Origin: Candidatus Methylumidiphilus alinenensis
GTDB taxonomy: Bacteria; Pseudomonadota; Gammaproteobacteria; Methylococcales; Methylococcaceae
Direction of reading: 5' to 3'
DNA: 38,734 nt
NCBI GenBank assembly: GCA_003242955.1
Contig: QJPH01000438.1
Span: 1-38,734 of the forward strand
The translations under genes and the position numbers were made by a program. This document shows positions 1,905 to 36,433 of the stretch, one piece after another. The notes beneath the pieces are model-generated. The model was not told where the DNA came from. It made no database searches and saw only the letters and a program-made list of their open reading frames with translations. Position 1 is the stretch's first letter. Each line of letters starts with the position of its first letter.

Positions 1905-2023
1905 GATTTTAGGTAAGCGTTCACTCCCCCCCGCCTTTTCCTGGGAGCGCGGCCATCATGGCCGCAATTCTGGCGGGCGGGACGCCCGCGCTCCCAGGGG
2001 GGAGTGAACGCTTACGATTTTAG
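1905..2023. mobile_element. Family A MITE-like palindrome, copy A1, with 8-bp target duplication
   Basis: The element spans 1913-2015 (103 bp). Its ends are perfect 19-bp inverted repeats starting GTAAGCGTTCACTCC. Inside is an 11-bp stem (CCTGGGAGCGC with GCGCTCCCAGG), then the hairpins GCGGCCATCATGGCCGC and GCGGGCGGGACGCCCGC. It is flanked on both sides by GATTTTAG (1905-1912 and 2016-2023), an 8-bp target-site duplication. It lies between the LysM and spike genes. It carries no transposase, so it would need one supplied in trans. Confidence 0.85.
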
Positions 2024-4051: not shown

Positions 4052-4298
4052 TCATTTCCCGTTCACTCCCCCCGGCCTTTTCCTAGGAACGCGGTCACCT
4101 TGACCGCCTTTTTTGCAGGCGGGATGCCCGCGCTCCCAGGCAATACTGTTGAATTAAGGAGTAGGTCGGCATCCCTATGCCGACTGAGCACACGGTTTGT
4201 CTCGGCGGCAAAGGGTTGCCGCCCTACGATTTGGTACGTGAGCGTGCTTAATTCAACGGTATTGGCGCTCCCAAGGGGAGTGAACGGGTATCATTTCC
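4052..4298. mobile_element. Family A palindrome, copy A4, split by a family B element
   Basis: The outer element (4060-4290) begins CGTTCACTCCCCC and ends GGGGAGTGAACGGGTA. It is bounded by an 8-bp target duplication, TCATTTCC, at 4052-4059 and 4291-4298. The right duplication contains the stop codon of the 160-aa tube gene. Its right arm (GCGCTCCCA) occurs twice because a family B element (4141-4264) interrupts it. The nesting shows that the family A insertion came first. Confidence 0.75.
4141..4264. mobile_element. Family B MITE-like element, copy B1, nested in A4
   Basis: This 124-bp element has 18-bp inverted ends, CAATACTGTTGAATTAAG and CTTAATTCAACGGTATTG (17 of 18 match). The interior holds two hairpins, GTCGGCATCCCTATGCCGAC and GGCGGCAAAGGGTTGCCGCC. 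It is flanked by GCGCTCCCA on both sides (starting at 4130 and 4265), compatible with a 9-bp target duplication. Related copies are at 8028-8160 and 23962-24095. Confidence 0.75.
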
Positions 4299-8868: not shown

Positions 8869-9609
8869 GATAATTATTACCGAGTAAAATACTAGTTAAA
8901 TCGGACTACAATATACGCACCGATATAATATGACCACAGTCAATAAAAAACAATAGCTACAGCGTTTTCATATTCTAATAGTTACTTACTTAACGTACAT
9001 CCATGTCGGCAAAGGGTTGCCAACCTACTGTGTAACAAGGGTCGTAGGGCGGCAACCCCTTGCCGCCAAAGATAAACAAAGTAATCAATCGAAGTTAAAA
9101 ACGCTGTATAATGCAGATTTTGACATGGATAACCCACATGTATCTGGCATCAAGGGATGTAAGTTTCGGTCTATGACAAGTCTGGGAAAGCAGGAAAAGC
9201 CGTCGTTTCGGCAGGGATGCCGAAATCCAGGCCATGGACGGTAATAAGTCGGTTATGCAAATGCTTAAATTAGGTAACATGCCAACCCGCAGTTTCATGT
9301 TCGCGGTTACTGGGAAATCGGTCGCGGCCCCCCCCAGTTTGCCATCCTTGGACGCTGGATTTCGGCATCCATGCCGAAATGACGGGTCTTCTACACTTCG
9401 AGCGCTGGATCGAGGGAACCAGAAAAGACGGCTACAAACTTAGGGCGGGGCTGTTCAAGGCCGTTCGTGGTGAGTCCTGAGCTTGTCGAAGGATCGAACC
9501 ATGAACGGCTTAAACGTCCACCCTTCGACTGCTCGACAGGCTCGCAGCTCAGGGCGAACGGTTAAGCTTTTCACCTGTCCCGCCTTAAGCTGATAGCCTT
9601 TCATGGCTA
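8869..9609. repeat. Intergenic stretch made of several palindromic repeats
   Basis: No gene is supported here. The first ~130 bp are AT-rich and could carry a minus-strand promoter. Then come a GGCAAAGGGTTGCC hairpin pair (about 9005-9067), a family D element (9200-9385), and an inverted pair built on CTGAGCTTGTCGAAGG and CCTTCGACTGCTCGACAGG (about 9454-9562), a common bacterial intergenic repeat. The apparent frames across this stretch run through repeats. Confidence 0.6.
9200..9385. repeat. Family D element, copy D1
   Basis: The two arms, 9200-9241 and about 9342-9385, are inverted copies that each contain a TTTCGGCAT...ATGCCGAAA-type palindrome joined to CCATGGACGG or its complement-like CCATCCTTGGACGCTGG. 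The interior (9242-9341) shares words such as CCCGCAGTTTCATGTTC with copy D2 at 10418-10595 (CCCGTAGTTTCATGTTC). The copies therefore belong to one element about 180 bp long. They flank the ABC ATPase gene. Confidence 0.65.
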
Positions 9610-10417: not shown

Positions 10418-10595
10418 CCGTCATTTCGGCAGGGATGCCGAAATCCAGGCCATGGACGGTATCCAGTCGATTGCACATGCGCTTGATTAAGATTGCTTGC
10501 CAGCCCGTAGTTTCATGTTCTTGAATACAGGGACACTTGTCGTGAACCCATGTTGCCATCCGTGGACGCTGGATTTCGGCATCCTGCCGAAATGA
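10418..10595. repeat. Family D element, copy D2, inside the ABC transporter operon
   Basis: The arms contain TTTCGGCAGGGATGCCGAAA and ATTTCGGCATCCTGCCGAAAT, joined to CCATGGACGG and CCATCCGTGGACGCTGG. The interior is similar to D1. Outside the arms lie TAGACAAGTAGA and ACACTTGTGTATAACGGCG; the latter matches the outer sequence of the nested palindrome at 24169-24256. It occupies the space between the permease stop and the ATPase start. Confidence 0.65.
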
Positions 10596-10683
10596 CGTGC
10601 CTCCAACACTTGTGTATAACGGCGAGAGCAGTCGCTTGGGAACCAGCGCAGAGGAGGAAAATCAAATATAAATTGGTTATAAA

Positions 10684-11427: not shown

Positions 11428-11517
11428 CAACTTACCTGATTAACAAGTCGTATCAGCTAAACCCAAAGCGTCGAAGTCCCGGTATGGATCACCAGAACAT
11501 AGGCTCCATGGACAGCG

Positions 11518-11573
11518 AGGTTTGGGGGCATCCCTGCAATCTGGATTCCGGCGATCCATGCCGGAATGACGGA
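11518..11573. repeat. Diverged family D-type palindrome
   Basis: CTGGATTCCGGCGATCCATG continues into GCCGGAATGACGG, an imperfect palindrome of the widespread GGATTCCGGCAT...ATGCCGGAATGACG type. It lies between the permease start and the end of the hybrid kinase gene. Confidence 0.5.
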
Positions 11574-16160: not shown

Positions 16161-16276
16161 GAACTTGATTAAGCGTTCACCCCCCTTGGGAGCGCGGGTG
16201 TCTCGCCCGCTGAGGGCGGCCAAGATGGCCGCACTCCCGAGAAAAAGCAGGGGGGAGTGAACGCTTACGAACTTGA
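16161..16276. mobile_element. Family A palindrome, copy A2, with 8-bp target duplication
   Basis: The element is 16169-16268 (100 bp), starting TTAAGCGTTCACCCCCC and ending GGGGGGAGTGAACGCTTAC. Its internal hairpins are in the opposite order from copy A1, so it is inserted in the other orientation. GAACTTGA flanks it at 16161-16168 and 16269-16276. It lies between the divergent response regulator and DUF6316-like genes, where it could affect promoters of both. Confidence 0.85.
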
Positions 16277-24095: not shown

Positions 24096-24140
24096 ACGCT
24101 CCAGGACAGTAGGGCGGCAACCCTTTGCCGCCAATTATTT

Positions 24141-24282
24141 TGATCGTTCCCACGCTCCGGCGCTCATCGTTATACACAAGTGTAGAAAACCCGTCATTTC
24201 GGCAGGGATGCCGAAATGACGGCTATTCCTATTTTCCCAGACTTGTGTAATCGCCGAGCGCCGGAGCGTGGGAGCGATCAGA
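24141..24282. repeat. Three palindromes nested inside each other
   Basis: The outer pair is TTCCCACGCTCCGGCGCTC and GAGCGCCGGAGCGTGGGA (family C). Inside it lie TTATACACAAGTGTAGAAAA and its diverged partner TTTTCCCAGACTTGTGTAAT. At the centre is CCGTCATTTCGGC and GCCGAAATGACGG around AGGGAT (family D core). The symmetrical nesting suggests successive insertions, each near the centre of an earlier one. Confidence 0.75.
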
Positions 24283-24310
24283 GCACTGGAGCGTGGTAAC
24301 CAGAAAAACT

Positions 24311-33073: not shown

Positions 33074-33205
33074 TGAAATTATCCGTAGTTACAGCGTTTT
33101 TAATATATCGAATAATTGCTTGTAGAGTTATATTATTTTTCAAAGCAATTCACACAATTGGTAGTTTGATTGAGTGTCCTTTATTATTTTCTTTGTTAAG
33201 AAAAA

Positions 33206-33343
33206 ACGGCCTTGGTTATCATTCAGCCCGATTGGGTGAGTCCGTAGCCCGGATGGAGCCGCTTGCGGCGTAATCCGGGTTTTGTGGTCGGCATCCTCCC
33301 GGATTGCGCCGCAAGCGGCTCCATCCGGGCTACGACACTACGG
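33206..33343. repeat. 138-bp repeat (family E), copy 1, downstream of the M50 protease gene
   Basis: The repeat starts ACGGCCTTGG and contains a long hairpin, GTAGCCCGGATGGAGCCGCT with its complement AGCGGCTCCATCCGGGCTAC. It is nearly identical, in the same orientation, to 35005-35142. Together the two copies bracket the M50 protease gene. No T run follows the hairpin. Confidence 0.85.
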
Positions 33344-33350
33344 TTTTGAT

Positions 33351-34967
33351 TTAGTATTGCGCCAGAGGAAACCGCTTTACCAGTTCTTTAGCATCCCCGC
33401 GATTGGTTACACTTAATCCTCGTAAGCGGGGATCGAAAAACCTGTAATCGACTTGTGTATTTTCCCATTCGCCAATTTTCTTAAATTCCCATGAGTAGTG
33501 GAGAGTAAGGCCACCAGTCTGTTCGCTCCAATACGAAACCAGATACGCTGCGCCCTTGTCTGTTATGTAGGCCACCTTCGCCTGACTTTTTAGCGCGATC
33601 TGCATAGCGATCTTCATGTACCAGTCATTGGTGATATCTGGCGGAACACCAGTTGGATTTGCGGTTCGGATAAAGGTCTCTGCAGCATAGACGGGAAACT
33701 TGTTTGCACTGAATTCCAAACACAAACCAGTCGTACCGCTATAAATGAATCGTTTGGATGAATTTGGGTTAGCGACCGTAACAATAGCATTATTTCTAGG
33801 AATATCACTTACGGCATATCGCATATTGTCAGTATTGTCCTGTAAGAATGGTAAACATTTCTGTTTCTCTCTTGCCAAATTTTCCTTGGTCAAAACCACG
33901 GTATCAAATTTTTGTTTGATTCGGATTTGATCGAGTGGCACATAATCTCGGGTCGTGGCGGGGTATTGTAACCGTTCACTCCCTTCTGGGGGCGTGGGCA
34001 TCTTGCCCGCAGAAATGGCGGCCAAGTTGGCCGCGTTCCCAGGAAAAGGCAGGGGGGAATGAACAGTTACTGTGTATTTGTTCTTCTGTGGATCGTCGGG
34101 GGGGTCGGTAACATTGACATGAACGTTTGGAACACGGAGTACCATCACGAAGGTCATCGCAGAGCCTAATACCACCATTAACCCAAAATATATCGCTGCG
34201 AAGCCTAAGCGTGTGCCAGTGGAAACCTGATAATAAGATTTATCCGGTGAACGCCATATTTTCCAAGCTTGGATAATACCTAAAATCAGCAACAGAATGA
34301 TGATTGGATTATAAAAAACAAGTGCGGCAAACGCCATCAGCGGAATGCCAATCAGCCACATTAACGGTGAAATGGCCCCGACTATTCTCCCGCCGTCCAA
34401 GGGGTGGACCGGAATCAAATTCAACAAGTTAAGCAAGCAACCGCTATAGGCCAGTGCCACTAACAAATTATTGTTGAACATCAGACCGGCTACAAGGCAG
34501 GCTAAGGCACCCAAGCTACCCAGTACCGGGCCACCCGCCGCCATGATCGCCTCACTACGCGCATCAGTGGGTTGCTGTTTCATAGTGATGAACGCACCAA
34601 CAAAAGGAATGAACAGCGGCATTGAGACCGGTATGCCAATCAGCTTGGCTGCCAACACATGACCACATTCATGCAAGGCTATCAGTAGCACGAAGCCAAA
34701 AGCATACCACCAGCCCATCTGCTGGGTGTATAGGGCAATCATCAAGAACATTGATGCGAAGGTGCCAAAAAATTTTGCAAATTTGAAGGCGACCAGCAAG
34801 AATTTGAATTTGTAAAATATGCCACCTATCAATGCCAAGACCCCCCAACCGCTTTTTTTGGCCTGTTTCGTGGTCTCTACAGATGGAGCGTTTTGAATGT
34901 TTGCAGTTTTTTCGTCTAGCTGTAATTCGGCTTCGGCAGGTGTAATGACAGAATGATTGGTAGACAT
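33351..34967 (-). CDS. Site-2-protease-like M50 metalloprotease with C-terminal extension
   Basis: This 538-aa membrane protein has the zinc site LHECGHVLAAK (H99-E100-x-x-H103) and the third-ligand motif NLIPVHPLDGGR, both needed for intramembrane proteolysis. About six membrane helices lie between residues 40 and 275. The C-terminal ~240 residues are soluble and unassigned. Residues ~299-333 are encoded by an inserted family A palindrome that keeps the frame. Family enzymes cut membrane-bound regulators or transport proteins. I prefer the ATG at 34967, with GGGA 8 bases upstream; 34979 is possible. Family E repeats lie on both sides, and no partner gene is in the same transcript. Confidence 0.85.
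   Translation of the reverse strand: MSTNHSVITPAEAELQLDEKTANIQNAPSVETTKQAKKSGWGVLALIGGIFYKFKFLLVAFKFAKFFGTFASMFLMIALYTQQMGWWYAFGFVLLIALHECGHVLAAKLIGIPVSMPLFIPFVGAFITMKQQPTDARSEAIMAAGGPVLGSLGALACLVAGLMFNNNLLVALAYSGCLLNLLNLIPVHPLDGGRIVGAISPLMWLIGIPLMAFAALVFYNPIIILLLILGIIQAWKIWRSPDKSYYQVSTGTRLGFAAIYFGLMVVLGSAMTFVMVLRVPNVHVNVTDPPDDPQKNKYTVTVHSPLPFPGNAANLAAISAGKMPTPPEGSERLQYPATTRDYVPLDQIRIKQKFDTVVLTKENLAREKQKCLPFLQDNTDNMRYAVSDIPRNNAIVTVANPNSSKRFIYSGTTGLCLEFSANKFPVYAAETFIRTANPTGVPPDITNDWYMKIAMQIALKSQAKVAYITDKGAAYLVSYWSEQTGGLTLHYSWEFKKIGEWENTQVDYRFFDPRLRGLSVTNRGDAKELVKRFPLAQY
33968..34070. mobile_element. Family A palindrome, copy A3, inserted in frame in the M50 gene
   Basis: This 103-bp element begins GTAACCGTTCACTCCC and ends GGGGGGAATGAACAGTTAC. 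The flanks GGGGTATT (33960-33967) and TGTGTATT (34071-34078) match at 6 of 8 positions, as expected of an ageing target duplication. 103 + 8 = 111 bases, or 37 codons, and the frame on the minus strand has no stop. The encoded peptide includes VTVHSPLPFPGNAANLAAIS. Confidence 0.85.
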
Positions 34968-35004
34968 GATATTTCCCATTCAATTTTGAGTAATTAGAAA
35001 ATTA

Positions 35005-35142
35005 ACGGCCTTGGTCATCGTTCAGCCCGCTTGGGTGAGTCCGTAGCCCGGATGGAGCCGCTTGCGGCGTAATCCGGGTTTTGTGGTCGGCGTCCTCCCG
35101 GATTGCGCCGCAAGCGGCTCCATCCGGGCTACGACACTACGG
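35005..35142. repeat. 138-bp repeat (family E), copy 2, upstream of the M50 protease gene
   Basis: Direct repeat of 33206-33343 with few differences. It lies between the exported protein gene and the M50 gene start, where any M50 promoter should lie, so the hairpin may affect its expression. The following GGCGGATTATCGCTTCGCTCC carries on a diverged palindromic sequence. Confidence 0.85.
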
Positions 35143-35178
35143 CGGATTATCGCTTCGCTCCGAATCCGACTTATGAGT

Positions 35179-35943
35179 TTATACAAGCAATTTGCGGCAA
35201 CCGAATCCGATCAAGCCAGCCAATGCTGAACCGACCATCCAGATGGCGGCGGGAACGGGGGTGGTGGCGATTGGGACACTACCCATACTGCCACCCGTAC
35301 TAGGGGGGATATACGTAGTGCAAGAGGAATTACTTGTGCAGTTGATTACGGTTTCAAAATAGGATGTGTTGGACCCGCCGTTATAATATCCATCACTAGA
35401 ATCAGATATCCAAGATGACGATGCTTTGATGCCTGGGATTTGGCCCATATACGAACCCCATATACCACTCCCATTTTGAGCTTCTATCGTGGCTTGGACA
35501 AAAGTGCCGAGAGAGCCTGTTGTGGTGCCGTAGTATGCGCCTAAGGTTCCAGTCGTTGACACGCCCCAATTAGGGTTGCCAGTAGAGATTGATTGCGTAC
35601 CGTTTGCAAATTGGTAACCAGTATCCGACAATGAAAAATCACCCAAAAAAGCACCAGGGCCACCTGTGTTAATAGCTTGGATTATCAAATACTCCGATTG
35701 ACCTGATATCGTGGCACTGTTGTTGGTGACTGTGGTACCCCATCCCGGGTAGACACTGTATGGCCACGTGATCTGCTCCTGAACGATTGTTGCCCCTACC
35801 AGACTGTTGGCATTGGGGCTTAAATATTCAATGAATTCATTGTCCACATTGACGCTGCTTGTAAGCGTTGTCGCTTCCGCTTGGCCTATGCTAAATACGG
35901 CCAATGACGTTATAGTCATGAGCGTTTTTTCAAGTGTCTTCAT
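35179..35943 (-). CDS. Exported protein with VPxPA/PEP-CTERM-like C-terminal sorting signal
   Basis: This 254-aa protein has a signal peptide (about 1-24, ending GQAEA), a Gly/Ser/Thr/Asn-rich middle with no recognised domain, and a C-terminal tail TTPVPAAIWMVGSALAGLIG followed by FGCRKLLV. That tail (short proline motif, hydrophobic helix, basic end) is the layout of PEP-CTERM and VPxPA signals cut by exosortase-type enzymes. Cysteines in NCTSNSSCTT may form a disulfide. AGGAG lies 8 bases before the ATG. The likely place is the outer surface or an exopolysaccharide matrix. Confidence 0.8.
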   Translation of the reverse strand: MKTLEKTLMTITSLAVFSIGQAEATTLTSSVNVDNEFIEYLSPNANSLVGATIVQEQITWPYSVYPGWGTTVTNNSATISGQSEYLIIQAINTGGPGAFLGDFSLSDTGYQFANGTQSISTGNPNWGVSTTGTLGAYYGTTTGSLGTFVQATIEAQNGSGIWGSYMGQIPGIKASSSWISDSSDGYYNGGSNTSYFETVINCTSNSSCTTYIPPSTGGSMGSVPIATTPVPAAIWMVGSALAGLIGFGCRKLLV

Positions 35944-36433
35944 TGTGATTCTCCTGTACTGTTGCGTTAGATTCTGGGTTTAAAGTGAAGTCCGGTTGAT
36001 GTTGGCGTTCGGTTTAGAGCAATTTTATGAAAAGCCAAACGAGGCAATCATGCCTAACCGGCGAAGCGCGATGGGGTTTGCAACCCCATCGCTTACGTTT
36101 TGTGTGTGCAACTATTCCTGCAAAATTACAAAACGTTACGGACGGGATTACAAATCCCGGCCGGCTGCGGTATTCTGCCCGGTCATGACTCCGTCCGAGT
36201 GCGCCGTAACCCGACATATCCGGCCGCCACGTGTTGGGTTACGGAGCAAAAAAACGCGCCTAACCCAACAACTAGTCAACATCATCCCCGAAAATCCCAA
36301 GCTTAGGCTGCGGCGGCGGCGAAACGCGGGAAACCGCCGGTGAAATGCGGCTTTCGCCCGTCCAAATGCAGCGTGGACCGCCCTTGGCTTTGTTAAAATC
36401 CCCTATCGCAATTAAACTCATCGTGTTCATTCC
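35944..36433. repeat. Intergenic region with hairpins and two dispersed repeats
   Basis: No gene is supported. It holds the perfect palindrome GCGATGGGGTTTGCAACCCC plus five bases (36068-36092), the pair ACGTTTTGT and ACAAAACGT (36095-36103 and 36127-36135), GGGATTACAAATCCC, the word ATTCTGCCCGGTCATGACT (36171-36189, repeated at 38669-38687), a GGGTTACG/CTAACCC arm, and the second copy of family G (about 36310-36380). A promoter for the kinase gene at 36434 must lie at the right end, but none stands out. Confidence 0.6.

What the first reader, a model, noticed from the sequence alone, without database searches (positions are those of the whole stretch)
33960..34078. A mobile palindrome has become 37 codons of a membrane protease
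Family A copy A3 lies inside the M50 gene. Element (103 bp) plus target duplication (8 bp) equals 111 bases, exactly 37 codons, and the reading frame is open through it. Both duplication and ends have diverged more than in the other copies, which suggests the insertion is old and tolerated. The element length may favour such protein-compatible insertions, since intergenic copy A1 is also 103 bp.
Basis: partly seen in the sequence, partly recalled or inferred. Interest (0 to 1): 0.75.

Follow-up and report, generated by a model that had tools for sequence, protein, structure and literature searches.

The report
Mobile palindrome inside a protease gene
A 103-base jumping DNA element, one of over a hundred in this bacterium, sits inside a membrane-protease gene without breaking its reading frame and adds 37 codons; sister copies have done the same to other genes, one of them next to a near-identical gene copy that still lacks the insert.

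Summary
Window 33968-34070 (-) is a 103-bp copy of an inverted-repeat family, flanked by 8-bp repeats matching 6 of 8, in frame inside an M50-type protease gene; 103+8 = 111 bp = 37 codons. It is one of 107 full-length copies examined in this genome; 82 of 107 have 8-bp duplications matching at 7-8 positions, control 0 of 107. GTAAGCG ends, 8-bp duplications and two resident IS66 transposase genes with similar ends make it an IS66-type MITE. The M50 case itself cannot be tested on homologues: those found end before the insert, and the C-terminal part has no relative found. Sister copies show the mechanism: a reductase gene with a perfect empty site in the same assembly, nine close homologues lacking net 37 residues, and a tape-measure gene whose closest relative lacks exactly 37. 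Of 11 copies inside genes 6 keep the frame, 1.6 expected. Usually only one phase per orientation is free of stops. No sign that peptide or frame is selected. It works like Rickettsia palindromic elements but derives from IS66.

The parts
33968..34070 (-). MITE copy A3, 103 bp, reads as one open frame (phase 0) inside the M50 gene
34071..34078 (-). target duplication, gene-upstream side, AATACACA on the minus strand
33960..33967 (-). target duplication, gene-downstream side, AATACCCC on the minus strand (6 of 8 identical)
33351..34979 (-). host gene: Peptidase_M50 (site-2-protease type) membrane core, about residues 53-290, plus a C-terminal part without found relatives; insert lies between them
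   Evidence: hexamer coding scores 0.316 left and 0.195 right of the insert
1913..2015 (+). MITE copy A1, 103 bp, perfect 8-bp duplication GATTTTAG
16169..16268 (-). MITE copy A2, 100 bp, 8-bp duplication TCAAGTTC
4060..4140 (+). truncated MITE copy (family positions 6-86)

Best explanation
The segment is an old copy of a non-autonomous IS66-type element (MITE). An IS66 transposase acting in trans is inferred to have inserted the 103-bp element into an existing accessory M50 protease gene, copying 8 bp of target, so that 111 bp (37 codons) were added. Because the terminal repeats carry stop codons in the other two phases, only an entry at phase 0 leaves the gene open; this one entered at phase 0, in the joint between the membrane protease core and the C-terminal part, and was tolerated. 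It has since drifted (13 of 103 positions), weakening the palindrome. Shown: family, terminal repeats, duplications, an empty site for a sister copy, open frame here. Inferred: transposition in trans by the resident IS66 transposases, translation of the insert, a neutral role as linker.
For: Family of 107 full copies among 118 listed places, duplications of 7-8 of 8 in 82 of 107 against 0 of 107 in an offset control. Empty site: the reductase gene in L066 has CTTTCCGG-element-CTTTCCGG, the 95-97% identical contig L089 has CTTTCCGG once; nine close homologues (L089-L097) each lack net 37 residues. Tape-measure gene L067: closest relative L210 lacks exactly 37. IS66: transposase genes in L084 and L085 pass the NCBIfam IS66 cut-off and are bracketed by GTAAACGATCACCCCCCT / GTACACGTTCACCCCCCC and GTAACCGTTTACCCCCCC / GTAACCGTTTAGCCCCCC; passages of PMC11946415 give IS66 repeats starting GTAAGCG and 8-bp duplications. 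Frame: 103-bp copies are open in forward phase 0 in 37 of 37, reverse phase 0 in 27 of 37, in the other four in 0-1 of 37. Survivor bias: 6 of 11 in-gene copies in frame and open against an average chance of 0.146, P = 0.0023; 6 of 8 with strong coding evidence, P = 0.0002. A3 against consensus: 3 silent, 8 replacement, 0 nonsense codon changes.
Against: No homologue of this gene spans the insertion point, so the empty site of A3 itself was not seen. Its duplication matches at only 6 of 8. The element of L085 has no matching 8-bp flanks and that of L084 begins at a contig edge. The in-gene test rests on a hexamer score, a chosen threshold and 11 copies; the family profile was built partly from copies found through this protein's frame, which may favour 103-bp copies in the list. 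Distant tape-measure relatives L213 and L214 align with a 37-residue gap in one alignment but not pairwise (5 and 12). No expression data.
Confidence: 0.88

Rival explanations
1. The M50 gene (or its C-terminal half) is unexpressed or decaying and the open frame through the element is incidental.
For: The gene was found in none of the six other genomes of its genus; in G004 the matching interval is about 600 bp instead of 2.97 kb; the C-terminal part has no relative found.
Against: 542 codons without a stop, M50 domain above its curated cut-off, positive coding scores on both sides of the insert.
Confidence: 0.15
2. The insert was kept because it is useful, for example as a linker that sets the distance between protease core and C-terminal domain (domestication).
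For: It lies between the membrane core and the C-terminal part and stays open although 12.6% diverged.
Against: 8 replacement to 3 silent codon changes shows no constraint on the peptide, and the other 31 103-bp copies show a similar mix (205 replacement, 51 silent). Removing 111 bp leaves an intact frame.
Confidence: 0.07
3. The element family has been shaped so that its copies are harmless inside genes (length plus duplication a codon multiple, one stop-free phase in each orientation).
For: 103 bp is the modal length; frame-compatible lengths are 44 of 96 outside genes (P = 0.007 against one third); one stop-free phase in each orientation.
Against: Nonsense changes are not depleted (2 observed, 3.1 expected, P = 0.33; reverse phase 0: 8 observed, 7.5 expected). 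Lengths from 90 to 105 bp occur. The copies share ancestry, so the length bias may be a founder effect.
Confidence: 0.1
4. The palindrome is a native part of the protein-coding gene and the resemblance to the repeats is chance.
For: None found.
Against: E = 2e-26 to the family profile, duplication 6 of 8, 254 terminal repeats against 2 in the control.
Confidence: 0.01

Closest known systems
IS66 family insertion sequences and MITEs derived from insertion sequences in general
   Same: Inverted repeats starting GTAAGCG (GTAACCG in a subset), 8-bp target duplication, resident IS66 transposase genes with similar ends; no coding capacity needed for movement.
   Different: 103 bp only, no transposase. 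The three paper searches that combined MITE words with IS66 did not show a published IS66-derived MITE; the library holds open-access papers only.
Rickettsia palindromic elements (RPE)
   Same: Short palindromic repeats (about 150 bp in the review) inserted in frame in unrelated protein genes, adding a tolerated peptide (passages of review PMC10969869).
   Different: Unrelated sequence; here the parent transposase family, the 8-bp duplication and an empty site are visible, and 96 of 107 copies were not classed as inside genes.
Gene-breaking bacterial MITEs, e.g. the 102-bp MITE of Pseudomonas syringae pv. actinidiae and the hupL MITE of Thiomargarita
   Same: Size class and copy number similar in the first case (78 copies of 102 bp), insertion in genes (passages of PMC6053426 and PMC4853749).
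   Different: Those are reported as interrupting genes; here 6 of 11 in-gene copies keep the frame. The Psa paper links its MITE to ISPsy25, listed there as IS630.

Membership tests
MITE | short, terminal inverted repeats, no transposase gene | tested here: met
   103 bp, 19-bp repeats perfect in A1 and in the consensus
MITE | target-site duplication | tested here: met
   7-8 of 8 in 82 of 107 copies, control 0 of 107; A3 itself 6 of 8
MITE | multiple dispersed copies and mobility | tested here: met
MITE | parent transposase recognises the same ends | not testable with these tools
   similar ends bracket two IS66 transposase genes; action in trans needs experiment
IS66-derived | inverted repeat starting GTAAGCG | tested here: met
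   consensus starts GTAAGCG; feature taken from passages of PMC11946415
IS66-derived | 8-bp direct repeats | tested here: met
IS66-derived | full-length relative with IS66 transposase and its own target duplication | tested here: inconclusive
   two bracketed IS66 genes of 4 PF03050 matches; no duplication at L085, L084 at a contig edge
Rickettsia palindromic element | in-frame insertion in protein-coding genes, lacking in homologues | tested here: met
   met for the family: reductase and tape-measure genes; untestable for the M50 gene
Rickettsia palindromic element | sequence relationship to RPE families | not tested
   no RPE sequence was fetched; I claim likeness, not membership

The most novel reading that the evidence does not exclude
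This bacterial genus carries at least two unrelated palindromic families that are recurrently built into proteins in frame: the IS66-type MITE described here and a 131-bp palindrome with two sister forms, one seen mostly inside genes (end GTTGAATTAAG, 16 of 20 copies) and one mostly outside (end ATTAAGTTAAG, 1 of 21). Codon-compatible length and stop-free phase would then be adaptations of selfish DNA to life inside coding sequence, and a steady source of new protein segments in a non-rickettsial genus.
Probability: 0.2. Interest if true: 0.78.

Novelty: new member of a known kind. Interest (0 to 1): 0.52.

Why it matters
It extends in-frame, protein-coding palindromes, best known from Rickettsia, to an IS66-type MITE whose parent family, 8-bp duplication and empty site can be seen. 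That makes the mechanism testable: copy length plus duplication and the stops in the terminal repeats predict which insertions survive in genes. It also warns annotators that some orphan 37-residue segments are translated mobile DNA.

Tried and rejected
Homologues spanning the M50 insert: genome-contig scan with the bridged protein gave one distant hit, residues 100-204; 101 relatives, 369 class genomes and 38 family genomes, plasmids, viral contigs, PDB and Pfam gave none that covers residues 339-542. Single-sequence AlphaFold model of the M50 protein: mean pLDDT 44.9, not used. In one search the Burkholderia row of the alignment was taken in a wrong frame; only its correct ORF, printed in the same output and ending soon after the last membrane segment, is used. 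One search failed to extract four homologue rows and misread L096; one search repeats it with all 20 loci.

Selection on the frame: nonsense changes not depleted. Selection on the peptide: none seen. Weaker RNA folding of in-gene copies: no difference over all (P = 0.27), P = 0.04 against 103-bp copies only, uncorrected, so not claimed. Divergence of in-gene copies does not differ from the rest (P = 0.85). The AAA-type gene L065 (insert in frame) has only distant relatives and its alignment does not resolve the insert. Element in plasmids: no match; exact terminal repeat in viral contigs: none.

Full report
What is there. ORF 33351-34979 (-) codes for 542 residues; residues 92-168 match Peptidase_M50. 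On the coding strand it contains a 103-bp segment, GTAACTG...CGGTTAC (33968-34070), starting at codon phase 0, flanked by AATACACA and AATACCCC. Removing 111 bp leaves 505 open codons. The segment folds far better than shuffles of itself (z = -6.3) but less well than the intact A1 copy (-53 against -77 kcal/mol).

The family. The terminal repeat occurs 254 times (up to 3 mismatches) in the 6.57-Mb draft genome against 2 for the reversed control. A profile found 150 matches in the own genome (150 is the scoring cap) and 69, 25, 13, 2, 0 and 0 in six genomes of the same genus, which suggests recent and uneven expansion. From the listing I took 118 own-genome places; 107 have both ends. Lengths run from 90 to 105 bp, 103 being commonest (37). 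Duplications match at 8 of 8 in 63, 7 of 8 in 19; at offset flanks none of 107 reaches 7.

Origin. Four places match the IS66 transposase family. Two full ORFs pass the NCBIfam IS66 cut-off and are bracketed by inverted ends that resemble the MITE ends, GTAAACGATCACCCCCCT / GTACACGTTCACCCCCCC and GTAACCGTTTACCCCCCC / GTAACCGTTTAGCCCCCC. Some MITE copies start GTAACCGTTCAGCCCCCC, one base from the last of these. A paper passage gives IS66 repeats as starting GTAAGCG with 8-bp duplications (PMC11946415), and another shows GTAACCG ends as well (PMC12888890). Against: the L085 element has no matching 8-bp flanks and L084 starts at a contig edge, so those copies do not show their own transposition.

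Insertion in genes. For the 107 copies I removed element and one duplication in silico and asked for an ORF with coding hexamer score on both sides. Eleven copies lie in such frames, eight with strong scores. Six of the eleven keep the frame and hold no stop: an AAA-type protein (L065), a 708-codon membrane protein (L064), a contractile-injection tape-measure protein (L067), the M50 protein, a TPR protein (L191) and a thioredoxin-reductase-like protein (L066). Five break it. All six enter at phase 0 of the terminal repeat, as they must: 103-bp copies are open in forward phase 0 in 37 of 37, reverse phase 0 in 27 of 37, and in the other four phases in 0 or 1 of 37. The average chance of an open, frame-keeping entry is 0.146, so 1.6 of 11 would be expected; P = 0.0023 for 6 of 11 and 0.0002 for 6 of 8. 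Survivors in genes are thus filtered for frame. Caveats: small numbers, a score threshold of my choosing, and a profile built partly from copies found through this protein's frame.

Proof in sister genes. L066 carries the element with a perfect duplication; a second contig of the same assembly, L089, 95-97% identical along both flanks, has the single target CTTTCCGG and no element. Nine close homologues (L089-L097, 47-92% identity) each lack net 37 residues there; eleven distant reductases lack 28-39. For the tape-measure protein the closest relatives L210 and L211 lack net 37 (one run of 37 in L210), L212 38, while the distant L213 and L214 depend on the alignment (37 each; 5 and 12).

The M50 gene itself. 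The two best core relatives align to residues 53-272 and end soon after; plasmid relatives cover at most 36% of the query. Residues 339-542 matched nothing but the own genome in 369 class and 38 family genomes, nor Pfam, PDB at a useful level, or viral contigs. In relative G004 the matching interval between window 33090 and 36062 is about 600 bp instead of 2.97 kb, so this is an accessory gene. The insert therefore lies between the protease core and a lineage-specific C-terminal part; that it acts as a loose linker is inference. Against consensus A3 has 3 silent and 8 replacement codon changes and no stop: the frame is open, but nothing shows that the peptide matters.

Is the family adapted to genes? 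One stop-free phase in each orientation and a modal length that gives 37 codons look suggestive, but nonsense changes are not depleted (2 seen, 3.1 expected), frame-compatible length is not significantly enriched in genes (P = 0.12), and the excess outside genes (44 of 96; P = 0.007) may be shared descent. I keep this as an open, less likely reading.

Comparison with the known. Review passages (PMC10969869) state that in-frame fusions by MITEs inside genes are not unusual and are most frequent for Rickettsia palindromic elements. This family works like those but is not shown to be related. Searches combining MITE words with IS66 returned 2, 1 and 0 papers, none of which, in the passages I read, describes an IS66-derived MITE; of PMC5665950 I saw the listing only. 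The library is open-access only. Verdict: a real, well-supported case of a known kind with an unusually clear mechanism.

Noticed in passing
L067 (tape-measure gene), L245-L259, L260-L279; partial copy in window 11476-11572 (-): A second, unrelated palindromic family of 131 bp (peptide SRHSGMDRRNPDC...GDPCRND) lies in frame in many long ORFs of this genus. Two sister forms: end GTTGAATTAAG, 16 of 20 copies in genes; end ATTAAGTTAAG, 1 of 21; one copy undecided. 13 of the 17 in-gene copies came from loci that I fetched for their long ORFs; without those loci it is 4 of 8 against 0 of 20, P = 0.003.
   Followed up: partly
window 33205-33343 and 35004-35142: The M50 gene is bracketed by two direct 139-bp repeats (97% identical), each a pair of inverted REP-like arms; the interval from 33090 to 36062 shrinks to about 600 bp in relative G004, as if the gene with its neighbour were a gained or lost cassette.
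   Followed up: partly
L066 (G000:C385) and L089 (G000:C391): Two contigs of one assembly, 95-97% identical along nearly their whole length, one with and one without the MITE: strain mixture or a duplicated locus.
   Followed up: no
L068 (G000:C115) and L169 (G000:C155): Two genes with strong coding scores are broken by copies with perfect 8-bp duplications: by frameshift plus stop (101 bp) and by two stops (103 bp, wrong phase).
   Followed up: partly
L252 (G006) and L259 (G003): Similar proteins of two relatives both carry the 131-bp palindrome in frame at about the same place, which suggests an insert kept since before the two genomes parted.
   Followed up: no
window 9200-9391, 10418-10611, 24109-24307: Further palindromic repeat families (ATTTCGGCAGGGATGCCGAAAT and relatives) in several copies.
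   Followed up: no
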